A stretch of 64,000 bases of DNA, taken from contig NZ_OW711693.1 in assembly GCF_940670685.1 (NCBI RefSeq), forward strand, positions 1,364,001 to 1,428,000. Direction: 5' to 3'. The notes beneath the pieces were generated by a model that saw only the letters and a program-made list of their open reading frames with translations, did not search any database and was not told the origin of the DNA. The translations under genes were made by a program, and so were the position numbers. Source of the stretch: Anaeropeptidivorans aminofermentans (GTDB lineage Bacteria; Bacillota; Clostridia; Lachnospirales; UBA5962). Below, piece by piece: positions 5,032 to 64,000 of the stretch (within the stretch, counting starts at the first letter, position 1; each line of letters starts with the position of its first letter).

Positions 5032-6114
5032 TTAAATATTATAATAATGGCCATTGTAGTAGGGCTGGGGCTTAAAGCAGGCTACCTGATGGCTATCAGA
5101 TGGATTAGGGCTTACAGAAGATAACAGGGGCATTTCCTTATAGCAGCGTTCTGATGCTATAGGGCAGCGCGATGCGAAACGGCATGCTTCGGGAGGGTTA
5201 ATAGAGCTTGGCACATCCCCTGATAAAACAATCCTTTTTTGTCCTCTAAGATGAGGATTGTGAACGGGATAAGCACTTAGCAGGGCCCTTGTATAAGGGT
5301 GGTAAGGGGAGCTGAAAATATCCTTGGTTGAAGCAATCTCAACAATTTTTCCCATATACATAACGGCTATGCGGTTGCTTACATATTTTACCGCGCCGAG
5401 TCCGTGGGCAATAAAAAGAAAAGTAAGATTAAATTCCGCCTGCAAGTCCTTTAAAAGGTTCAGTATTTGGGCCTGAATCGATACGTCAAGGGCCGATACG
5501 GGCTCATCGCATATAATCATCTTCGGGTCGAGAGCTAGGGCCCGGGCTATTCCGATACGCTGACGCTGGCCCCCTGAAAATTCATTGGGATAGCGGTTTT
5601 TATGCTCCGGCAAGAGCCCTACCGATGCAAGGAGGCTTTCAACCTTCATGTCTATCTTATTTTCGGGACATAAGTGATGTACTTTCAAAGGTTCCGATAT
5701 AATATCTATAACCCGCTTGCGGGGAGGCAGAGAGGAGAAGGGGTCCTGAAAAATCATCTGTATTTGGCGGCGCATGCTTAAGGCCTTTTTCCCTTTCATC
5801 CCGGAAATGTTTCCACCGGAAAACTTAATGGAACCGCTTATTTCGGCGTCAAAGTCAATATTAAGCACGCTACGCCCCAAGGTGGATTTTCCGCAGCCGG
5901 ATTCTCCTACGAGCCCAAGGGATTCCCCCGGATAAACCGAAAGGCTTACCCCATCTACAGCCTTTATGTATCCTACCATACGGGAAATAATTCCTTTCTT
6001 TATGGGATAATAGGATTTTACATCCTTAAGCTCCAATAACGGCTTCGATTCTTGGCTTTTTTGTATTATTTCAATTTGCTCTGAATATTCTTCAGGCTTT
6101 TTTACATCAAGCAT
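5032..6114 (-). CDS. oppF: Oligopeptide ABC transporter ATPase, OppF/DppF type
   Basis: Cytoplasmic ATPase of 360 residues that powers peptide import with OppD. Walker [10 protein letters not shown], signature FSGGQRQRIGIARAL, Walker B MIICDEPVSALD and the switch histidine in FIAHGLGAV are all present. The C-terminal peptide-transporter domain carries a Cys-rich segment (CRFASRCP, later CYKE and ACFKP). A DppDF pair of this family has been reported to hold an Fe-S cluster there; whether this one does is inference. Its ATG overlaps the end of oppD by 8 nt, which suggests translational coupling. Confidence 0.92.
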   Translation of the reverse strand: MLDVKKPEEYSEQIEIIQKSQESKPLLELKDVKSYYPIKKGIISRMVGYIKAVDGVSLSVYPGESLGLVGESGCGKSTLGRSVLNIDFDAEISGSIKFSGGNISGMKGKKALSMRRQIQMIFQDPFSSLPPRKRVIDIISEPLKVHHLCPENKIDMKVESLLASVGLLPEHKNRYPNEFSGGQRQRIGIARALALDPKMIICDEPVSALDVSIQAQILNLLKDLQAEFNLTFLFIAHGLGAVKYVSNRIAVMYMGKIVEIASTKDIFSSPYHPYTRALLSAYPVHNPHLRGQKRIVLSGDVPSSINPPEACRFASRCPIASERCYKEMPLLSSVSPNPSDSHQVACFKPQPYYNGHYYNI

Positions 6115-7117
6115 TGGGCGGACCCTCCTTTTCTTCCCATTGGGATTTGAAGCATCTTACAAAATGACCCTTCCTGATTTCTAAGAGAGGCGGAGTCTGA
6201 ATTTTGCATTTGTCCCGGCAAAATGCGCATCGATTATGGAAGCGGCAGCCTTTAGGCATATCCGTCAAAGGAGGAACGCTTCCCTTTATTGAACTGAGCC
6301 TTTTATTTTCTTCTGCCCAGACGTGGGGAACGGAATCCATAAGGCCTTGTGTATACGGATGCATGGGCCTGTCGAAAAGGGAGAAAACATCGGCCTCTTC
6401 TACTATTTGACCGGCATACATAATGATCACTCTATCTGCCATTTCCGCCAATACGCCTAAATCATGGGTAATCAAAAGTATGGATGTTCCCGTGTCTATT
6501 TGAAATTTTTTCATGAGACTAAGTATTTGCGCCTGAATTGTTACATCAAGGGCTGTAGTCGGCTCATCTGCAATCAAGAGCTCCGGATGGCAAAGCATCG
6601 CCATGGCAATCATAACCCTCTGCTGCATACCGCCGGAGAGCATATGGGGATAGCTTTTGAATATTGTATCGGGGTGGGGGATTCCGACCTCAGTAAGCAT
6701 ATGAAGTACGCGCAATTTGGCTTCTGCGGCGCTAAGATTCCTATGAATACGGATAGCTTCCGTAAGCTGACCGCCAATTGTAAAGACCGGATTAAGGGAA
6801 GTCATGGCTTCCTGAAATATCATGGCTATGCTGTCTCCGCGGATACGGCGCATTTGAGCATTGTTTTTTTTCAGCAGATCTTCGCCTTTAAAACGCACTT
6901 CTCCGCCGCGGATTTTCCCCTTTTTACCGAGAAGGCCCATAAGGGCCATAGAGGTTACGCTTTTCCCGCAGCCTGATTCTCCGGCCATCCCCAGAGTTTT
7001 TCCCTTTTCTATATCAAAGCTTACGCCGTCAATGACTGTAAGCTCTTTTTTATCTGATTTAAAGCTAACTTTAAGATTTTCCACTTCCAAAAGAGTATCT
7101 TCTTTGACCATTGGCAT
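6107..7117 (-). CDS. oppD: Oligopeptide ABC transporter ATPase, OppD/DppD type
   Basis: ATPase partner of OppF. Walker [10 protein letters not shown], signature [15 protein letters not shown] and Walker [13 protein letters not shown] mark the OppD/DppD branch. The C-terminal CRFHNRC and following cysteines mirror those of OppF. Three starts are possible: TTG 7129, ATG 7117 and ATG 7111. AAAGGG just upstream favours one of the ATGs; 7117 is given here. It is the first gene of the oppDFBC cluster. The binding-protein gene lies upstream, beyond a 528-nt repeat-containing gap, and may be transcribed separately. Confidence 0.9.
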
Positions 7118-54630: not shown

Positions 54631-56118
54631 CTATTCATTAGTAATATTAAGGGCTAAATAGCTGAGCGTGATACCACGGATATAGTTTTCAAGTTCCTCA
54701 CAGTGTCCTTCTCCGGCCAGTGTCATCAGGGTGCGTAAGTGATGGCGGAAGTCATGGCGCAGCTTTGCACTTTCTTCCACCTTCTGATTCATCTGCCGCA
54801 GATGCTCCACCTGCATGGTAAGCTGTCGTTTCATCTGCCGCTGTTCCTCGGCGTATACAAGGCTGTGGCGGTAACCCATGGTAATATCATACCCCAGCAC
54901 CACTCCGGTTGCGATGACAAGGCTTAAGCTGCCCCATTCCTGAAACCAGCCGCTAAGGATTGGCTCGTAGTTTGGGAGAAGGCGGTCCCAGACAAAAGCG
55001 CAGGCATAGATGATATCTGCATAGAGCAGTATGGTCGCTTTTTCTATCGTACGGCGTACCGCCATAGCGGCGGTAAACAGAAGATAAATAGCGGTAAGCA
55101 GCTTGAAACCGAAAACCAGATTGGAAAAGGCAAGCATCACCGGCAGTGTAAGATGCGCAGCAAATACCCCGTAAAGAAGCACCAACATACAGACAACTCC
55201 GGAGGCGGCACCGCTGATTACCTGCATAGTTCTTTTTGTGTCGCAGATGCGATTGTGGAGAATGATCACAAGCAGCGTTACCAGATATCCGCTGACCAGT
55301 TCTACCGTGTACCACGGCTGGATCGGCAGCGGAAGAATACCATGCACCACGCTGTAGGAAGTAAATACTGCGGTCGAAAGGCACAAAAGAAAAAAGAGCC
55401 AGATATTGTTCCCACGGCGGGTACGGATGGCAAGATAAAAGCTAAAAATGGCAAGCATCAATGTTACCGTGACCAAAATCAGGCAAATCCCGAACCGCAG
55501 TCCCCGGATGGTGTAAGTATTCAGAGGTTCGCCAAAGGAAGGCGGATAAACAAGACCGCTGTATAAAAAGGAGTGGTCACTGACCGCAAGCAGAAGTGTC
55601 ACCTTGCCGGAAGCTTCAAAGGTAATGACACGGCATTGGGTCTGGTCCTGATAATCGTCTGGCTCCGGTTCGCCCATTTGCAGCTTCAGTTTATCATCAA
55701 TGTAAAACCGGTAAGCGGAATAGATTTCAGGCAGTTCAATGGCATAGGTATGTTCCTCCTCCGGCAGGTACAGTGTTAAGGCATAGCTGGCGCTTCCATG
55801 AGGGGAGCGGCGGGAGTCGCCCATGGCAAAATTAGACTGTTCTCCAATGGACAGGTACTGATAATTGTCACCCTGTTGTATTAAGGTTTCCGGTGTCAGC
55901 AGGCGGTCTGCATAGAAACGCCAGCCGTCCCGCAGATAGCGGATGGGTGTGTCTGTCCAGTCTGCTTCTGAAACATACAGCGCACCGTTAATGGCCTGAG
56001 GTGCTGCCTTTGTGTACTTATTGTCAAAGTGGTATAGGGCAAGAAACAGAGCGGAGGAAAGGGCAACCATCAGAAGCAGCGCCAAAGATCGCCGTAATAC
56101 AAAAGGTTTTTTATCCAT
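54631..56118 (-). CDS. Sensor histidine kinase lacking its ATPase domain (7TM-DISM/GHKL type)
   Basis: A 495-residue protein. One N-terminal membrane segment ([19 protein letters not shown]), an extracellular 7TMR-DISM-like beta domain (about 50-200), seven membrane helices (about 205-400), then a helix with the phosphoacceptor box [14 protein letters not shown] (about 451-464). The GHKL ATPase domain (N, G1 and G2 boxes) that should follow is absent. The frame ends about 30 residues after the H-box, just where base composition drops, so it is most likely truncated by a deletion or element boundary. It starts 8 nt inside the surface-protein gene. Confidence 0.75.
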
Positions 56119-58369
56119 GGCGTTTCCTCCTGAAAAGTGTAATTCCTCCCGCAGCTAAAAGCAAGCCGCCAGATACGGGAAGCAGAGGCGATGTACTTTT
56201 CCCAGTCTCCTGTGTATTTGATAGTTCTGTAATGGTATAAGTTCCTGCCGTATCTGCTGCAAAGCGCAGAAGTTCCCCGTCATAGGAAACATCTGTAATA
56301 TGTTCCCCAGCTTCATTTTGAATGGTGATATCAGTCTGTTCCGACTTCGGCATGTATCGAAGCCGCAATACTGTTCCCGAAAGCTGCGTAACCGGTTTGC
56401 CTGAAACCTCCACTGCAAGCACAATCTGATTGCTTTCCGGCTGGGTCAGCATAACAGTCAGAGTATCCGCATCCGACAGGTTCAGTGCTAAAAGCAGCTT
56501 GCTTGGAATACTGACGGTTACATCGCCGGAACCAAATACGACGCTTTCTTCCTCTTTACAGAGATCCTTTAGACGCAGACCGGAAATGACCGTTTGGGTC
56601 GGAGAATAGGATTCTGTAACAGTGGTAGATACCTGAGATTCTAAGCTTTTCTCCGACTGTGTAGTGTTATCGTCCGGTACTGGGCTGCCTACTGTTTGGG
56701 TACTGTCCTTCGGTTTGGGTACTGTATCGTTTTTTTGCTCAACAGAAGTACTCTCTGCTTCCCGTGAAAAGAAAGCATCGGAAAACACTGGTACCGCTGA
56801 TTCAGTCGGAGTGGCAGGAGTCACGGCTGTCGGTTTCTCTGTTACAGGAACCTGAGCCTGTGAATTGCCTTCGCTGTTATGACTGTCATTACTTTGAGAG
56901 TCACTGGGTGATTGTGGCGCAGATGGAGACGGCTCATCTTCATCTGTTGAGGAATTCTGTCCTCCCTGCGGTTTCTGTTGTTCTCCTGATGAGGATGAAT
57001 CCTGTGAGGGCTCATCTGTATCTGAGGAGGAATCGCTCGTATCAGGTGAATCATTATTATTACCTGAATTGTTATCCTCATTGGAATTATTGGGCGGATT
57101 GGTTGGAGGTGGAGCAGGTTGTGTACCGGTTCCTGAACCTCCTCCATTTACATCGCCGCCATCTCGGTCACCACCGGAATAATCAAGAATACTAAGCTCC
57201 CCGTCATATTGAAAGGTCAGAACACCGGTCTGACCGCCGGGATAGGTCACCTTAAGCTCATAAGTGCTTCCATAGGTAAGTACTCGCTGAGAAAGCTGGA
57301 GACCATCGGAGACAGACAGAAAGCCATCATTTAGGCTTGCCCATTCTCCGCCATCTTGCCGTAGCCATACAGCAAACTCCTCCAGTTGTTTCTCCTGTGC
57401 GGCAGAAAGCACCCACGGAAAGCGCAGAAAGCCACGTCCCGCTACACAGCAGTTAATATCCGGCTTACCGGGAACCTGAATGGAAACCGCACAAAGCTGC
57501 CGGGGCAGAGAAACACCGTTTGCCAGAGTATACTCTGTTCCAAGGTCAGGTGATGTAAAAGCATAGTACACGCCTGCCGTGACAGTGTCTACGGCATCCA
57601 AAGACCATGCACCTGAGATTAAGTCATAGGGATTGCCATCTGCATCATAGCCGGTAAAGCCTGCGATGGTATCGGCAAACCAATTGGAAAGCTCCTCCTG
57701 CGTGGTTCCTACGGGGAATGCCACGGCATCTGTCCGGTAGGGTTCATCAAAGCTGGTCAGAGTGATTGCAGCAGGCGTTACGGTAAGTAGCGGAGCAGTT
57801 ACCTGTACAGAAACGGCGACCGTATTTTCTAGTCCTTCGGAAAGCGTTGCTCCGGCTGGAATGGAAATGTTTCCAATCACAGTGTAAGTACCGGGTGTCT
57901 CTGCATCCACTGTGCTGAAATCCCATGCAACAGACAATGTAAGCGGATAGGAAGAACCATCCTTTTCTGCTGTGGTGGGAATGCTGATAGAATCCAGTTC
58001 ATTCTGTAACTGCGTAAAGTCGGTATCGCCGTAATCCGTATTGAACGTACTTGTGAAAGCATCTGGGGTAGTATAGGAAATGATACTGCCGGTATAGTCA
58101 AAGGTGTCAGGAATGGCACTGTCTTCAGTTCCGCCCGCTCTGACAGTGCTGTCGCCTGTACCTCTGGTTTCATCACCATCTGTGACCATATCTGCATCGG
58201 AAGGAGTCGTGGTGTCTATGCTGTCATCCGAAACAGAACCGCTGCCGTAATCGGTAACAGTATCTGTGGTTTCGGCAGGTACAACCGGTTCCACTGCCGC
58301 CAGTACAGGCGGTGCAAGTGCTGTACAAACCAGAAAAGCGGTTAAAATCAGTGCAAGTATCTGCTTCAT
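56111..58369 (-). CDS. Secreted surface protein with Ig-like domains and C-terminal anchor
   Basis: A 752-residue protein. Signal peptide ILALILTAFLVCTALAPPVLA, Thr/Asp-rich spacer, then two bacterial Ig-like (BIG4-type) domains around residues 88-190 and 195-300 with the PGTYTVIG motif. A Ser/Asn/Asp/Pro low-complexity stalk (about 410-565) follows, then another folded segment (about 600-715). The end has a hydrophobic helix and RRKRHG tail preceded by SPLLPVSGG, sortase-like but not LPXTG. It is sandwiched between response regulator (4-nt overlap) and kinase (8-nt overlap), so it may be the extracellular sensor of that system (inference). Confidence 0.75.
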   Translation of the reverse strand: MKQILALILTAFLVCTALAPPVLAAVEPVVPAETTDTVTDYGSGSVSDDSIDTTTPSDADMVTDGDETRGTGDSTVRAGGTEDSAIPDTFDYTGSIISYTTPDAFTSTFNTDYGDTDFTQLQNELDSISIPTTAEKDGSSYPLTLSVAWDFSTVDAETPGTYTVIGNISIPAGATLSEGLENTVAVSVQVTAPLLTVTPAAITLTSFDEPYRTDAVAFPVGTTQEELSNWFADTIAGFTGYDADGNPYDLISGAWSLDAVDTVTAGVYYAFTSPDLGTEYTLANGVSLPRQLCAVSIQVPGKPDINCCVAGRGFLRFPWVLSAAQEKQLEEFAVWLRQDGGEWASLNDGFLSVSDGLQLSQRVLTYGSTYELKVTYPGGQTGVLTFQYDGELSILDYSGGDRDGGDVNGGGSGTGTQPAPPPTNPPNNSNEDNNSGNNNDSPDTSDSSSDTDEPSQDSSSSGEQQKPQGGQNSSTDEDEPSPSAPQSPSDSQSNDSHNSEGNSQAQVPVTEKPTAVTPATPTESAVPVFSDAFFSREAESTSVEQKNDTVPKPKDSTQTVGSPVPDDNTTQSEKSLESQVSTTVTESYSPTQTVISGLRLKDLCKEEESVVFGSGDVTVSIPSKLLLALNLSDADTLTVMLTQPESNQIVLAVEVSGKPVTQLSGTVLRLRYMPKSEQTDITIQNEAGEHITDVSYDGELLRFAADTAGTYTITELSNTQETGKSTSPLLPVSGGLLLAAGGITLFRRKRHG

Positions 58370-59091
58370 ATTCCCTCCCCCCGTAGCGAACCGGCGGAGA
58401 GACTCAGGCGCTGCCCTTGTACCTGCCGTTGCAGGCGACGGCTGACCGGCAGCTGCTCCCCGTTTTTCAGGATAAGATAATCGCTGCCAAGCTCCCGCAC
58501 TTCCTTTAGGTTGATTACAATACCCTTAAAGCAGGACATAAACTGCGGATAGGAGCAAAGCTTATCGGAAAGCTCCGAGAAGCTGCCGGATACCGGAACG
58601 AGACAGTCCTTTAAATGGATACAAGCAAAGCGGTTCTGATAATCCGCATAGAGAATCCTGTCCAGCGTGATTTCCAGCAGCTGATTCCTTGTGGTAACCG
58701 TGATGGAGGGAACGCTCTGCGGCTCTGCAATCTTGCAATAGTGCAGTGCCCTTGAGAGTTTGTCCAATGTGGCTGGTTTTACGATGTAATCCGCAGCACG
58801 GACATCGTAGCTTTTTACACCAAATTCTGAGCTGGTGGTAAGGAAAATAAGATTGAGATTCTCGTCCAGCTGTCGCAGCTTCAAGGCGCAGTCCACGCCG
58901 TTTTCGTTGTTCAGATAAATATCCATAAAGACAACATCATAGCTGCCCGGTATGTAATCGGCAAGTAATTCCCTGCCACTGTGGAATTCTGTAATTTTCA
59001 TTGGTTGATGCTGATTGGTTTCATATTGCTTCAAAAGGTTGCGGAGTATTTCACACTCAGTAGCCATATCATCTACGATTGCCGCATTCAT
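58366..59091 (-). CDS. LytTR-family response regulator
   Basis: A 241-residue regulator from the ATG at 59091 (AAGGAGG 8-9 nt upstream). The receiver domain has acidic DD near residues 7-8, the phosphoacceptor in VVFMDIYLN, LTTSSEFGV and the lysine in YIVKPATLD. The C-terminal LytTR DNA-binding domain (about 135-235) has ILYADYQNRFACIHL and FKGIVINLKEVREL. First gene of the minus-strand operon with the surface protein and kinase. Candidate binding repeats lie in the divergent promoter region (59159-59187). Confidence 0.9.
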   Translation of the reverse strand: MNAAIVDDMATECEILRNLLKQYETNQHQPMKITEFHSGRELLADYIPGSYDVVFMDIYLNNENGVDCALKLRQLDENLNLIFLTTSSEFGVKSYDVRAADYIVKPATLDKLSRALHYCKIAEPQSVPSITVTTRNQLLEITLDRILYADYQNRFACIHLKDCLVPVSGSFSELSDKLCSYPQFMSCFKGIVINLKEVRELGSDYLILKNGEQLPVSRRLQRQVQGQRLSLSAGSLRGEGI

Positions 59092-59129: not shown

Positions 59130-59158
59130 ATTATACCATATATTTCAGGAAAAAAATA
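59130..59158 (-). promoter_or_regulatory. Promoter of the LytTR operon
   Basis: On the minus strand a perfect TATAAT (59135-59130) has a weak -35 (TATTTT, 59158-59153) at 17-bp spacing. A weak -35 next to a regulator site fits activation by the LytTR protein. Confidence 0.5.
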
Positions 59159-59187
59159 ACCGCTTGTGCAGATTTTCGACCGCTTGA
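59159..59187. promoter_or_regulatory. Candidate LytTR binding site (direct repeat)
   Basis: Two direct repeats ACCGCTTGT (59159-59167) and ACCGCTTGA (59179-59187), 20 bp start to start, match the 9-bp LytTR half-site pattern and 11-12-bp spacing as I recall it, with one or two deviations each. It sits 10 bp upstream of the plus-strand -35 and adjoins the minus-strand -35. Confidence 0.55.
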
Positions 59188-59197
59188 TCATAACCCA

Positions 59198-59226
59198 TTG
59201 AAAAACAATTGACAAAATGCTACCCT
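59198..59226 (+). promoter_or_regulatory. Promoter of the small-protein/giant-adhesin operon
   Basis: TTGAAA (59198) and TACCCT (59221) with 17-bp spacing. The weak -10 fits a regulator-dependent promoter. A nearby TTGACA at 59209 has no well-spaced -10. Confidence 0.4.
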
Positions 59227-59230
59227 AATA

Positions 59231-59275
59231 AAAACTACCAGACTTCCTGAAAAAGGGGGTCTCGGTAGTTTTTTA
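59231..59275 (+). terminator. Terminator-like hairpin in the leader of the adhesin operon
   Basis: AAAACTACC-AGAC pairs with GTCT-GGTAGTTTT, followed by TTAATTTCC. No plus-strand gene ends upstream, so it would be transcribed right after the promoter and could act as an attenuator. Confidence 0.65.
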
Positions 59276-59305: not shown

Positions 59306-59695
59306 TTGAATGTGGCGTTATGCGGTGTAGATGAGAAAACCGCCTGTGAACTGGAACGATACGGTGAATACCGTATTCTGCGTTTTTCTGACGAGCCGGA
59401 ACGGCGCGGTGATGTAAAGCTGGCCTATTATCTGCGGGACGGTCCCCGTGTGTCGCTTACCGTTGTGGGCTATCCCGGAGCCGAGGGGCTTTCCGCCTGT
59501 GATTATCTTCGGGCGCAGAGCCGTGCGCTGCCCATCATTTGGCTGTGTAACCGGCGGGAATTTGAATCGGAAGCAAAGCGGCTGAATGTCTGTTTTTGCA
59601 GCACCGGCCCACCCGGAAAGAAGAACCTTTTTGCAATGCTGATGCATGTCGGCTTTTTGTCCAGTACCGAATTGGATGTTTGCAGCGGCAGATAA
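59306..59695 (+). CDS. Small receiver-like protein preceding the giant surface protein
   Basis: 129 residues from a TTG start with AAGGAGG 8 nt upstream. The layout (a central TVVGYPGAEGLSACDYLRAQ, then LPIIWLCNRREFESEA, then a glycine/lysine turn) recalls the second half of a receiver domain, but the phosphoacceptor Asp is absent and the N-terminal acidic pair is missing. It is likely a non-phosphorylated pseudo-receiver or an unrelated look-alike. It lies 74 nt before the giant gene and is probably co-transcribed. I cannot assign a function. Confidence 0.6.
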   Translation: MNVALCGVDEKTACELERYGEYRILRFSDEPERRGDVKLAYYLRDGPRVSLTVVGYPGAEGLSACDYLRAQSRALPIIWLCNRREFESEAKRLNVCFCSTGPPGKKNLFAMLMHVGFLSSTELDVCSGR

Positions 59696-59769: not shown

Positions 59770-62700
59770 ATGGAAATACAACAAATGGCGGAGCGCATCA
59801 CCAGTGTTTCCGCCCGAAAAAAGGCAAAGCGGCTGCTGGCGGCATCGCTGGCTGTGCTGATGATCAATCCGGTTACCGGCTATGGCGTTGCGGCCCAGGC
59901 GAGGGAATCGGAAATCATCACGGCCTTTGTGGAGCTGCCCGGAGAGATTACTGCCCAGCAGCTGGAGGTAGGCGCGGCGGAATCGGGAATCCGACTGCCG
60001 GATACGCTGGATGTGACAGTCCGTGTTGCGGCGACAGACACCGCTGACGGCAATGAGGAAGCAGCTCAGTCCGAGCGAAGCACTACGGAAGAACCGGCGG
60101 CAGATGAAAATTCATCCGGGGATGCGTCAGTTTCTGGAAATGAATCGGTTGAGCCTGAAAATCAGGACAACAGTACAGCGGATAGTCTCGCTACAGGCAG
60201 TGAAGCCGAGCTTATTTTGGACAGCGGCGCAGAACCTGTTCCGGGTAACAGTAGCGCTGACCCGTCTGTAGAAACCACCACCGGCTCCGCCACCATCACA
60301 AATTTAGACGATGCGGATACCGAGCAGACAGAACCCGAAGCATTCACCTCGGAAGAGCGGACGCTGGTGGGCATCACATGGCAAATCAATGCGGATAACA
60401 GCACTTCCCAATCCTTTGATTCCAGTGAAAACGGCGCGTACTATACCTATGTGCCTGTTTTGCCGGAGGGTTATACCCTCGCGGACGGCGTGAGCTTGCC
60501 GGAAATCAACGTGCTGATTGGCAGCGCTATGATGATGCGTACATTATCTGGCGATTCGCCAATTTCCATCGGCGGCACAGCCGTTGAGACTGACGACTGG
60601 TACGCCCTCACGGACGAAAGCGGTACGGTAAGCACCGCGGACGCGAACGCGGACAATTGGAATGTCCATGTGACGAAAGACGATACCGATACAACCGTTA
60701 CCGTGACACTAAAGGATGCCACCATTGCAAACAATTCTTATTCTACCCATGCCATTGATGTCAGCGGGTATGATTTAGAGATTGTATTGGAAGGCACAAG
60801 CAACCGAATCGGAACAGGTACCACGAACGACAACGGCTATGCCGTATATAACAGAACTGACGGTAAGGATATCACCATTGGCGGCGCCGGGGATTTAACC
60901 CTGATGGGCTATTATGGCATATCCATCAACGGAACAGGCAACGTGGCCGTTGAAGTTGACGGCAGTCTGACCGTTCAATCCCAATGGCAAATGATCAGCT
61001 GCGGAGGGCAGCTTGATGTAACCGCAAAAAGTATCACTATGAATGGATATTACATTAATTGCGGTAACGGCGGCGTAAGCCTTGTTGCCGAGGACGGAGA
61101 TGTCAATATCAACGGCACCGGGGATTATGGTATCAAAGTTGATTCTGACATTTTGATATCCGTTCCAGAAGGTGCGATTTCCATAAGCGGCGAGAAATAT
61201 TCCTTGTATACGTCGGCAGGCACCCAAATTTCTGTTTACGCGAAAAACGACGTTTCCCTGACGGAATGTGTGCAAGGGGGTGACGGAATCGAGTCACAGA
61301 TTACCCTCACATCGCAAACTGGGGACATCACCGTCAACAGCGAAGATTATCAAGCCATTGCCGGCGCCAAAACGTATCTGGGGCTTTCAGCGCCAGAGGG
61401 GGATATTACGCTGACGGCGGAATCCTTAGGTCACAATGTGATTGCCGGAAGCAGTTATGAACTGAGCATTCTCGCGCGCGGCACGCTGGACGTGCAAGGG
61501 CAAGACGGTATTACTGGCTTCAGCACGGCGAATATCAAGGCGGAAAAGGTCAATATTGCCGCCACCGGCGACGGATATGGCATGAGCGGCGAAATCGTGT
61601 CCGTTACCAACCCCGAGGGCGGAAACTGCACGGATATCAGCATTTCCGGTGGGGGCGGCAGCCGGAATGCGCTTAACACGGGAGATCTTACCCTCAAGGC
61701 GGATAGGGTGATTGTCGCCGTCGCAAGCAACGCATCCTCCGCCATTTCTGCATACGGCGATGTCAGCATCGGCGACGCGGGAATGATTATCGGAGGAACG
61801 ATCGCTTCCGGCACAACAACCATTGCGGACGGTGTTCTGCAGGTGCAGGCGTCCGGCCCTGACGCGTCAAGCGGTCTGGATTTAAAAACCAATACGCCTG
61901 TTTATTCCACCTATTACAAGGCAGGGAACGGCTATGCGCTGTTTACACCGGCGCAGGATGATACGCCCGCCGTGCTGACGCTGCACAACGCGGAAATCGA
62001 AAACAATGACACTCCTCTGCAGCTGGTCGCGGATACAACCATTAAGCTGGAAGGCACGAACTATTTGACCAACACAAATACAACAAACGGCACGGTAGGG
62101 ATTCGTGCAAGCGGGACTGACGGCGCTTCTCACTCAGTTACCTTCCAAGGCGGTAATGACGATTCGCTGTACGTTTCCGCATGGCAATGCACCTCAGGCA
62201 TTGAGGAGATGACTATTTCCGGCGGAAAAGTCACTGTGTACGGCAGCTGCTATGGAATAACTGACACCGGGAATGTGCTGCTGGAAAACGGCGCACAGGT
62301 ATCCGTTACAGGCGGAGAAGACGGCGATGCGCTTTCGCTTGGTTTTCTTGAAGATGACGAATATGAGAGTGCCGCAAGGAACCTCACCATCAGCGGTGGA
62401 AGCTCCCTTGCCGCCTACGGCTATGTCATGATTCCCGGCAATTTAATAATGAGCGGCGAAAGCTCATCATATACCGCCGAAGAGGAACGTAGCGTTGTTT
62501 TAGGCGACCTGACAATTGGCAACGGAAGCACTTTGACCGTTCAGTCGGGCAGTGAGTTTAATGTGCGAAATTCCTCCTCCGCTGTTACCAACGAGGGAAC
62601 CCTCATCAACAACGGCATACTTCTGCTGCCTTACGAATACAACGCCGCTAAAGTCGCGGCATTGAACATCACCGGTAGCGGCGTTGTCAAGCTGTACTCC

Positions 62701-64000
62701 ATGGGCGAATTCCCTGAGGACGACCGCTACAAGGTCTATGTAAACGGCGAATTTTACGCGGACGGCGGAGAGCTGAATGCTCAAGGCTCATTGAATCTTA
62801 TCGACCCGCCTGAGGAAGCCACCTATTATAAATCGTCGGCAGACGACGCATATATCATTTACACCCCGTCATCCGGCAGTGCAGACGCCGTTGTGACGTT
62901 GCACGGCATGAATAATACAGGTTATCTGCAAGGCGGCATTGTTCTGCCAAATGCACCGGTTACCATTCGTGTGGAGGGAAATAATGAAATAATCTGGATA
63001 AGCGTTTCGGAAGCTGTTCACATTACCGGAAGCGGACACATTACCGGAAGAATTGAAAACGCTTCCTCCTCCGCCGAGCTGACCATCGACAGCGGCGTGA
63101 TTGCGAACGTCATGTATTCGACAACGACAGGCGGCGTTATCACGAATACAGTGTACGGCAATTATTTGACTAATGATGTTTATGTAACTGCAACCGATAA
63201 GCTGGTACTGATGCCCGGCACGGTTTTGACCGTGAATGCCGGATATGGGGAACTTGCTTTCAGCGAGGGAGCCAGCCTTTCTGATATGGGCATCGGAACA
63301 GGCGCGTCCATCGTGAATAATAACTACATCACTCTGCCTAAGGGTACAACAGCGGCGCAGATTGCGGTACTGCCCCTTTCCGGCAGCGGCGTTGTGCGGG
63401 TTGCGACGGCATATGATGATGGTTCGCCTTCCGCATGGGACACCTACACCAACGACGGCGTAGCCGTGAAACAAATCGGCGATGGGGGTTCTGGTCTTGA
63501 CCTGACAAGCGGCGACCACAGCGGCAAAACCGTAGCAAACGACGGCTATGCTTGGAACACCGACAGCAAAACATTAACCCTTGGTAACGCCTACATTGCC
63601 GGAAATCTGACGCTGCCTGCCGGAGCAATTGTCAACACGACTGCCGCTGCAATAATAAGCGAACGGCTTGAGGGCGAGTCCGGCGTGGCGATGAACATAA
63701 CCCTTGGCGGCACGGCGCCTTTGACCGTCGGCGGAGGCATCAGCGGGGGAGCAAATGGAGATCTTGTAACCGTTCAGGGCGGCGCGCAGGTTACGGTGGG
63801 CGGTTCCGTGTTTTTAGGAGCCTCCGGCGGAACAGACGGCACATTGACTGTCACCGGCGCGGGAACCCGACTGAGCGTTTCATCCCGTTACGGCTACGCG
63901 GTGATGTGCGATACGGTGAATGTGGGAAGCGGCGCGTCCATGACCGCCAACGGCGATTCCATCGGCGTGGAAGCACTGACCGGCGTGAACGTCACCGGCG
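59770..64000 (+). CDS. Giant repetitive secreted surface protein (partial, runs off the window)
   Basis: Open from ATG 59770 to the last base: at least 1,410 codons with no stop, translated line by line. GGAGG lies 5 nt before this ATG; an in-frame ATG at 59758 is less well placed. A basic N-terminus (SARKKAKR), hydrophobic stretch and AAQA give a signal peptide. An acidic Glu/Thr/Ser region follows (about 90-195). The rest is Gly/Ser/Thr/Asn-rich beta-strand repeats like a beta-helix adhesin. Related modules restart near residues 276, 712, 1017 and 1257 (YY-K, Y-L/I-YTP, A-VTL-, then IxLEGxN). Adhesion or surface-coat role is inferred; the C-terminal anchor is outside the window. Confidence 0.85.
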   Translation, partial: MEIQQMAERITSVSARKKAKRLLAASLAVLMINPVTGYGVAAQARESEIITAFVELPGEITAQQLEVGAAESGIRLPDTLDVTVRVAATDTADGNEEAAQSERSTTEEPAADENSSGDASVSGNESVEPENQDNSTADSLATGSEAELILDSGAEPVPGNSSADPSVETTTGSATITNLDDADTEQTEPEAFTSEERTLVGITWQINADNSTSQSFDSSENGAYYTYVPVLPEGYTLADGVSLPEINVLIGSAMMMRTLSGDSPISIGGTAVETDDWYALTDESGTVSTADANADNWNVHVTKDDTDTTVTVTLKDATIANNSYSTHAIDVSGYDLEIVLEGTSNRIGTGTTNDNGYAVYNRTDGKDITIGGAGDLTLMGYYGISINGTGNVAVEVDGSLTVQSQWQMISCGGQLDVTAKSITMNGYYINCGNGGVSLVAEDGDVNINGTGDYGIKVDSDILISVPEGAISISGEKYSLYTSAGTQISVYAKNDVSLTECVQGGDGIESQITLTSQTGDITVNSEDYQAIAGAKTYLGLSAPEGDITLTAESLGHNVIAGSSYELSILARGTLDVQGQDGITGFSTANIKAEKVNIAATGDGYGMSGEIVSVTNPEGGNCTDISISGGGGSRNALNTGDLTLKADRVIVAVASNASSAISAYGDVSIGDAGMIIGGTIASGTTTIADGVLQVQASGPDASSGLDLKTNTPVYSTYYKAGNGYALFTPAQDDTPAVLTLHNAEIENNDTPLQLVADTTIKLEGTNYLTNTNTTNGTVGIRASGTDGASHSVTFQGGNDDSLYVSAWQCTSGIEEMTISGGKVTVYGSCYGITDTGNVLLENGAQVSVTGGEDGDALSLGFLEDDEYESAARNLTISGGSSLAAYGYVMIPGNLIMSGESSSYTAEEERSVVLGDLTIGNGSTLTVQSGSEFNVRNSSSAVTNEGTLINNGILLLPYEYNAAKVAALNITGSGVVKLYSMGEFPEDDRYKVYVNGEFYADGGELNAQGSLNLIDPPEEATYYKSSADDAYIIYTPSSGSADAVVTLHGMNNTGYLQGGIVLPNAPVTIRVEGNNEIIWISVSEAVHITGSGHITGRIENASSSAELTIDSGVIANVMYSTTTGGVITNTVYGNYLTNDVYVTATDKLVLMPGTVLTVNAGYGELAFSEGASLSDMGIGTGASIVNNNYITLPKGTTAAQIAVLPLSGSGVVRVATAYDDGSPSAWDTYTNDGVAVKQIGDGGSGLDLTSGDHSGKTVANDGYAWNTDSKTLTLGNAYIAGNLTLPAGAIVNTTAAAIISERLEGESGVAMNITLGGTAPLTVGGGISGGANGDLVTVQGGAQVTVGGSVFLGASGGTDGTLTVTGAGTRLSVSSRYGYAVMCDTVNVGSGASMTANGDSIGVEALTGVNVTG

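What the first reader, a model, noticed from the sequence alone, without database searches (positions are those of the whole stretch)
59130..59275. Shared LytTR site between divergent promoters, followed by a leader hairpin
Direct repeats ACCGCTTGT/ACCGCTTGA with 20-bp periodicity lie 10 bp from the plus -35 and next to the minus -35. This is suited to co-activating both operons. Directly after the plus start region comes a terminator-like hairpin ending in a T-run, suggesting a second control step before the adhesin genes.
Basis: partly seen in the sequence, partly recalled or inferred. Interest (0 to 1): 0.5.

Follow-up and report, generated by a model that had tools for sequence, protein, structure and literature searches.

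The report
LytTR promoter with built-in leader hairpin
A regulator-binding DNA site sits between two oppositely directed operons for cell-surface proteins, and the mRNA of one of them is predicted to begin exactly with a terminator-like hairpin that keeps its pairing in relatives, so these surface genes may have a second switch after transcription has started.

Summary
Perfect repeats ACCGCTTG (59159, 59179; 20-bp period) lie 10 bp upstream of a plus promoter, TTGAAA-17-TACCCT with extended TG: the published LytTR geometry. The arrangement recurs ungapped in 18 aligned sites from Clostridia, including a second copy 7 kb downstream in the same genome. The minus promoter is an extended TGGTATAAT at a fixed distance from the repeats in 9 of 9 regulator-linked sites. 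It has no recognisable -35 and the repeats face the wrong way for canonical activation, so co-activation of both operons is unproven. The hairpin is real: its stem begins at the predicted +1 and is followed by a U-tract in 10 of 10 intact sites folded. It keeps pairing through compensatory changes. It is absent from 8 sites that keep repeats and promoter, so it is an optional module. I favour a promoter-proximal intrinsic terminator acting as a throttle. A 5' mRNA stabiliser is a serious rival, because the stem is 5'-terminal, which also leaves no room for an antiterminator fold. The window's sensor kinase gene has lost its ATPase domain. No binding, start-site or termination data were available.

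The parts
59159..59167 (+). LytTR direct repeat 1, ACCGCTTGT
   Evidence: conserved in 18 of 18 aligned sites with single-letter variants
59179..59187 (+). LytTR direct repeat 2, ACCGCTTGA, 11 bp after repeat 1 and 10 bp before -35
59198..59203 (+). plus -35 element TTGAAA
   Evidence: Position and letters kept across sites
59209..59219 (+). TTGACAAAATG in the -35/-10 spacer, kept in hairpin-bearing promoters
   Evidence: At most 1 mismatch in 12 of 12 hairpin-bearing and 0 of 8 hairpin-lacking sites; the contrast is not specific to this stretch
59218..59226 (+). plus extended -10, TGC-TACCCT
   Evidence: TGnTAnnnT in 18 of 18 aligned sites, hairpin or not
59233..59270 (+). 5'-terminal hairpin (5' arm 59233-59248, loop 59249-59253, 3' arm 59254-59270 with a bulged C at 59263); predicted +1 at 59233
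59269..59274 (+). T-run (U-tract) of the terminator-like element
   Evidence: T-run of 5-8 in 10 of 10 intact sites
59130..59138 (-). minus extended -10, TGG-TATAAT, of the regulator operon
   Evidence: Fixed distance to repeat 1 in 9 of 9 regulator-linked sites (8 at 29, 1 at 28 bp)
58366..59091 (-). receiver-LytTR response regulator gene
   Evidence: Response_reg E 3.6e-16, LytTR E 9.5e-10
56111..58369 (-). surface protein with LPXTG-type anchor, second gene of the regulator operon
   Evidence: TIGR01167 21.4 bits, cut-off 15.9
54631..56118 (-). sensor kinase gene, truncated: ATPase domain missing
   Evidence: Matches 1-485 of 644 residues of the A. odorimutans relative; intact relative in G031 has HATPase_c_5
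59306..59695 (+). small gene (129 aa, TTG start), first gene behind the hairpin
   Evidence: no Pfam match
59770..64000 (+). large surface protein gene (runs past the window to 66018 in joined coordinates) with SLH and choline-binding repeats

Best explanation
The repeats are the binding site of the neighbouring receiver-LytTR response regulator, which activates the plus promoter from the canonical position 10 bp upstream of -35. RNA polymerase starts at about 59233 and at once makes a 16-pair hairpin followed by a U-tract. This hairpin works as a promoter-proximal intrinsic terminator: a share of transcripts ends after about 40-45 nt, so leaky initiation gives little surface-protein mRNA, and only strong, activated initiation (or an unidentified factor) gives useful read-through. 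The stem fills the 5' end, so no upstream RNA exists to form an antiterminator; regulation at this step would have to come from polymerase-bound factors, or the step is a fixed throttle. On the minus strand an extended -10 promoter drives the regulator operon; the same bound regulator touches its -35 position and either activates or represses it. Shown by sequence: repeats, geometry, both promoters by conservation, pairing of the hairpin by covariation. Inferred: binding, start site, termination, direction of autoregulation.
For: Regulator has receiver and LytTR domains. Repeat geometry matches the published LytTR pattern. 18 sites align ungapped from repeat 1 to +1, hairpin or not. The second copy in the same genome keeps the promoter and re-pairs the stem. 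Covariation: 93.9% of 180 cells paired, 4 of 15 pairs changed on both sides, slid controls 34-56%. T-run of 5-8 in 10 of 10 intact sites although spelled differently, e.g. GTTTTTTTT, ATTTTTTTT, TTTTAATTT. In Anoxynatronum, where about 50 nt separate the outer 5' arm from the rest, the inner stem plus T8 survives at +57, away from the 5' end.
Against: No start-site, binding or termination data. The stem begins exactly at +1 in all 10 sites, which a terminator does not need and a 5' stabiliser does. 8 sites with the same repeats and promoter have no hairpin, so it is not needed for LytTR control. In this genome the kinase gene is truncated. The Anoxynatronum case is a single one.
Confidence: 0.5

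Rival explanations
1. The hairpin is a 5'-terminal mRNA stabiliser. With the first transcribed bases already paired, RppH-type and RNase J-type enzymes cannot engage, and the long (over 6 kb) surface-protein mRNA lives longer. The T-run is incidental or read through.
For: The stem starts at the predicted +1 in 10 of 10 intact sites. A hairpin at or near the 5' end is known to stabilise long downstream mRNA in Bacilli, and RppH needs a single-stranded 5' end (PMC3997798, passages).
Against: The T-run is kept in all 10 sites in different spellings and in Anoxynatronum, where the surviving stem is no longer 5'-terminal; a stabiliser needs no T-run.
Confidence: 0.25
2. The hairpin is an insulator: a (bidirectional) terminator that stops transcription entering from outside, from the upstream surface gene at tandem copies and antisense transcripts at copy 1. 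The promoter start lies a little further downstream than predicted, so it does not burden its own promoter.
For: At copy 2 and at the Marasmitruncus copies the unit stands directly behind an upstream surface-protein gene. The minus strand of the hairpin also folds well (-18.2 kcal/mol, z -5.0) and ends in U's.
Against: At copy 1 the upstream gene runs the other way. The extended -10 is fixed by hairpin-lacking relatives and puts the start before or at the stem, not behind it.
Confidence: 0.12
3. A further minus promoter, TTGTCA-17-TATGAT (59215 to 59187), drives the regulator operon, and the regulator shuts it by binding the repeats over its start.
For: It is the best promoter-like match of the region scanned (10 of 12 letters), and both hexamers are unchanged in 8 of the 10 intact hairpin sites.
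Against: It is kept at copy 2, Mar2 and Mar3, where no regulator gene was seen in that direction, and not kept in the hairpin-lacking regulator loci.
Confidence: 0.05
4. The inverted arms are a DNA operator for a repressor rather than an RNA structure.
For: The outer arms AACTACC/GGTAGTT are nearly constant in letters.
Against: The inner arms drift while pairing is kept, arm spacing varies by site, and a T-run follows.
Confidence: 0.05

Closest known systems
LytTR direct-repeat promoters (AgrA at agr P2/P3, VirR boxes, HdrR/BrsR)
   Same: Regulator with LytTR domain; two 9-bp direct repeats 11-12 bp apart, 10 bp upstream of -35; divergent operons as at agr
   Different: One repeat pair between the two operons; the plus transcript starts with a terminator-like hairpin
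Promoter-proximal attenuators / intrinsic terminators
   Same: Stable stem with a U-tract between promoter and first gene
   Different: The stem begins at +1, so no competing antiterminator can form; no leader peptide or Rfam element
AlpA and lambda Q antitermination promoters
   Same: Promoter with a terminator directly downstream; conserved letters between -35 and -10
   Different: No antiterminator protein known here; the regulator site lies upstream of -35; the spacer letters may be ancestry only
5' stabilising stem-loops of Bacilli
   Same: Hairpin at the very 5' end of a long mRNA
   Different: Followed by a conserved U-tract
LytTR Regulatory Systems (LRS)
   Same: LytTR DNA-binding domain and the same repeat geometry
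   Different: This regulator has a receiver domain and a kinase-type partner, not a membrane inhibitor

Membership tests
LytTR-activated promoter | Adjacent regulator with a LytTR DNA-binding domain | tested here: met
   LytTR E 9.5e-10, 39 bits, cut-off 22.6
LytTR-activated promoter | Two 9-bp direct repeats separated by 11-13 bp | tested here: met
   59159-59167 and 59179-59187, 11-bp gap; standard from PMC6193735 passages
LytTR-activated promoter | Repeats about 10 bp upstream of -35 | tested here: met
   10 bp on the plus side, spacing constant in 18 aligned sites
LytTR-activated promoter | Same geometry on the minus side (co-activation) | tested here: not met
   Repeats reversed, repeat 1 abuts the -35 position, no recognisable -35; this does not exclude another mode of control
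LytTR-activated promoter | Binding of the regulator to the repeats | not testable with these tools
   needs a gel shift or footprint
Intrinsic terminator | Stable stem, more stable than shuffles | tested here: met
   z -6.0
Intrinsic terminator | U-tract directly after the stem | tested here: met
   T-run of 5-8 in 10 of 10 intact sites
Intrinsic terminator | RNA ends at the U-tract | not testable with these tools
   needs 3'-end mapping or in vitro transcription
Attenuator with switching RNA (riboswitch, leader peptide) | Alternative antiterminator structure upstream of the terminator | tested here: not met
   The stem starts at the predicted +1; no Rfam family above chance
AlpA/Q-type antitermination | Specific element between -35 and -10 tied to a downstream terminator | tested here: inconclusive
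   12 of 12 against 0 of 8, but neighbouring windows split the same way
AlpA/Q-type antitermination | A protein that loads at the promoter and suppresses termination | not tested
   no candidate tested
LytTR Regulatory System (LRS) | LytTR regulator paired with a membrane inhibitor rather than a kinase | tested here: not met
   Receiver domain present; the partner gene is kinase-like and intact in G031 with HATPase_c_5. That LRS regulators lack a receiver is recalled

The most novel reading that the evidence does not exclude
The hairpin-bearing promoters are a two-step switch in which a factor loaded at the promoter (the LytTR regulator itself, one of the small receiver-like proteins encoded right behind the hairpin, or a protein reading TTGACAAAATG in the spacer) lets RNA polymerase pass the terminator at +35 to +45: a lambda-Q/AlpA-like antitermination step joined to a two-component LytTR system for surface proteins. 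The receiver-like first gene would then feed back on its own operon.
Probability: 0.1. Interest if true: 0.75.

Novelty: new variant of a known kind. Interest (0 to 1): 0.45.

Why it matters
As far as I recall, LytTR promoters are studied as switches of transcription initiation. Here a family of them, patchily distributed across Clostridia, carries a hairpin fused to the transcription start that covaries like RNA and can be missing without loss of the promoter. That gives natural pairs (with and without hairpin, even within Anaerovorax odorimutans) in which to ask whether large surface proteins have a post-initiation control step. It also gives a clean motif for finding the regulon.

Tried and rejected
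Rfam: only a chance-level rliE match. An overlapping minus promoter TTGTCA-17-TATGAT, top hit of the consensus scan, is not kept in the hairpin-lacking regulator loci. TTGACA at 59209 as the plus -35: no usable -10 at the right spacing, and hairpin-lacking relatives keep a TTGA-type -35 and TGnTAnnnT instead. Spacer element tied to the hairpin: the contrast holds (12 of 12 against 0 of 8; nominal Fisher p 8e-6, sites not independent), but the positional control shows that the whole block from 59186 on behaves alike, so I treat it as mostly ancestry. Trees of the regulator and of the first small protein were too poorly resolved to say whether the hairpin was gained once (on the DNA tree 3 changes against 3.3 for shuffled labels). 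The AlphaFold model of the first small receiver-like protein (9-sequence alignment) has mean pLDDT 50 and was not used for a fold search. Literature: searches combining LytTR with terminator, leader and readthrough (no paper), with antiterminat- (12 papers, 10 listed; titles and abstract starts seen, none on this) and with stem-loop terms (3 papers, listing seen, none on this) found no account of such a hairpin; only that open-licence library was searched. Weak matches L068, L069 and L070 show no such repeat pair and were dropped. AntC3 is a decayed site without a -10; it is in the pair count but not among the 10 intact sites. Sporanaerobium L025 has a hairpin remnant fused to a truncated regulator gene and was counted in no group. 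L065 and L066 were found later: they are but not in the pair count or the folds.

Full report
WHAT IS THERE. The window lies at G000:C1:1364001-1428000 of a single-contig 3.76-Mb genome. Between the regulator gene (minus strand, ATG at 59091) and the first plus-strand gene (TTG at 59306) lie, on the plus strand: ACCGCTTGT (59159-59167), 11 bp, ACCGCTTGA (59179-59187), 10 bp, TTGAAA (59198-59203), 17 bp, TACCCT (59221-59226) preceded by TGC. The predicted start is about 59233 (7 bases after the -10, a rule of thumb recalled). From that base a hairpin runs to 59270, followed by T's. Upstream, on the minus strand, TGGTATAAT (59138 to 59130) is the -10 of the regulator operon.

MORE THAN CHANCE. 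The zero-mismatch repeat pair is unique in the window; at up to 3 mismatches 2 matches are found where 0.24 are expected. The genome holds exactly two zero-mismatch pairs, and the next match has 2 mismatches. The second pair, 7 kb downstream and outside the window, belongs to a second copy of the whole promoter-hairpin unit in front of a second small-gene/surface-protein operon. The promoter part is nearly identical between the copies, while the inner stem and loop differ but still pair. The hairpin of the window folds with z -6.0.

DISTRIBUTION. The degenerate repeat pattern (up to 1 mismatch allowed) was found in 4 of 392 genomes of the order and 1 of 391 drawn from the class (the own genome); every match listed had 0 mismatches and the reversed control pattern had none. 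A DNA search found 3 of 96 relatives, 2 of 24 in the family of G007, 3 of 148 in the family of A. odorimutans, 3 of 197 in the family of Marasmitruncus (the match in G1062 shows no repeat pair) and 7 of 247 in the order of Fusibacter (the matches in G1218 and G1239 show no such pair). The regulator has relatives of 63-90% identity in nine named genomes, from Anaerovorax to Fusibacter, Proteocatella and Anoxynatronum. Sparse presence with high identity suggests horizontal spread; this is inference. From identical match tables I take G007 to be Sporanaerobium hydrogeniformans and G290 to be Anaerotignum neopropionicum.

THE PROMOTER. Eighteen sites align without a gap from repeat 1 to +1. Constant features are both repeats, a TTGA-like -35 (TAGA in the two Anaerotignum sites), and TGnTAnnnT. 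The extended -10 is the same in relatives whose hairpin is missing, which fixes the start independently of the hairpin. A distant site in G952 (L067) has the same repeats and a TATACT -10 in front of a small plus-strand gene, without the TGn and without a hairpin. Repeat length, gap and the 10-bp distance match the LytTR pattern described in PMC6193735 (passages); VirR boxes likewise sit just upstream of -35, in helical phase (PMC2838878, passages).

THE MINUS SIDE. ATTATA (the minus -10 read on plus) starts 29 bp before repeat 1 in 8 and 28 bp in 1 of 9 regulator-linked sites. It is absent from 8 of 9 sites not linked to the regulator, and the ninth (SpC2) has a remnant. So this promoter is real and its distance to the repeats is kept although the letters between drift. 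But the hexamer at the -35 place is TATTTT in the window, the repeats are reversed, and in Anoxynatronum no repeat pair was found in the 1.1 kb searched upstream of the regulator gene.

THE HAIRPIN. In 10 of 10 intact sites folded, the stem starts with the AAC at the predicted +1, has 13-17 pairs and -13.1 to -25.3 kcal/mol, and is followed by a T-run of 5-8. On 12 sequences (the 10, plus decayed AntC3 and the split Anoxynatronum site) 93.9% of 180 cells pair; 4 of 15 pairs have changes on both sides, 8 cells in all; shuffles reach the covariation score in 0 of 500; slid versions pair 34-56%. Against: the pair at columns 142-161 fails in 5 of 12 sequences, and 4 of 15 pairs depart only by non-pairs, 3 of them in the inner helix. 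Many of the 12 are close relatives, so the counts are not independent events. Two further sites (L065, L066) carry nearly the same hairpin as copy 2 and were not folded. Sites with repeats and promoter but no such hairpin: FusC9, FusC27, Prot, AntC9, AntC4, AodC9, Anmic and G952, 8 in all. In Anoxynatronum about 50 nt separate the outer 5' arm from the rest; the inner stem with T8 survives at +57.

WHAT IT DOES. Three readings compete. Terminator: supported by the T-run kept in different spellings and by Anoxynatronum. Stabiliser: supported by the blunt 5' position; 5' hairpins are known to protect mRNA in Bacilli (PMC3997798, passages). Insulator: weaker, since at copy 1 the upstream gene runs the other way. 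Classical attenuation is disfavoured because no RNA lies upstream to form an antiterminator. I put a functional terminator at about one half and a stabiliser at one quarter; both could hold at once. A promoter-loaded antiterminator as at alpB (PMC7969949, passages) is the boldest reading. It gains a little from TTGACAAAATG in the spacer (12 of 12 against 0 of 8), but the positional control shows the same kind of split for the windows from 59186 on.

CONTEXT. The plus operon encodes a small protein and then a large surface protein with SLH and choline-binding repeats; 'adhesin' is a guess. At copy 2 and nine other sites the first small gene is a receiver-like protein (found; the copy-2 protein scores Response_reg E 4e-4, below the curated cut-off). 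The first gene of the window's operon has no Pfam match. The cognate kinase gene of this window matches only residues 1-485 of 644 and lacks the ATPase domain; no close second half was found in the genome. The switch may therefore be unregulated or cross-regulated in this strain, and bench work should use a relative with an intact kinase. One site stands before a histidine kinase gene (SpC1) and one before a YibE/F gene (AodC9), so the regulon can reach beyond the surface operons.

Noticed in passing
54631-56118 (minus): Sensor kinase gene is truncated: it matches residues 1-485 of a 644-residue relative and lacks the HATPase domain that the G031 relative has; no close second half in the genome.
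   Followed up: yes
joined coordinates 66122-75135, past the window end (L003): Second copy of promoter, hairpin, two small genes and a surface-protein gene; that large gene reads as two open frames (1732 and 910 aa), so it may be broken.
   Followed up: partly
joined coordinates 76363-78390 (minus), past the window end: Another LytTR-type regulator with an adjacent kinase-like gene right behind the second surface-protein operon, a possible cross-talk partner given the truncated kinase.
   Followed up: no
L034 1500-3026 (Sporanaerobium contig C1): The complete repeat-promoter-hairpin unit stands alone before a HisKA_3 histidine kinase gene, so the module works or travels outside the surface-protein locus.
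   Followed up: partly
L025 about 6000-6215: In Sporanaerobium a regulator gene that lacks its first 70 residues is fused to the 3' half of a hairpin, as if a deletion joined the regulator to the leader.
   Followed up: partly
59306-59695: The small first gene in the window resembles the second of the two small genes found behind copy 2; the first, receiver-like one is missing here. It starts with TTG where relatives have GTG or ATG.
   Followed up: partly
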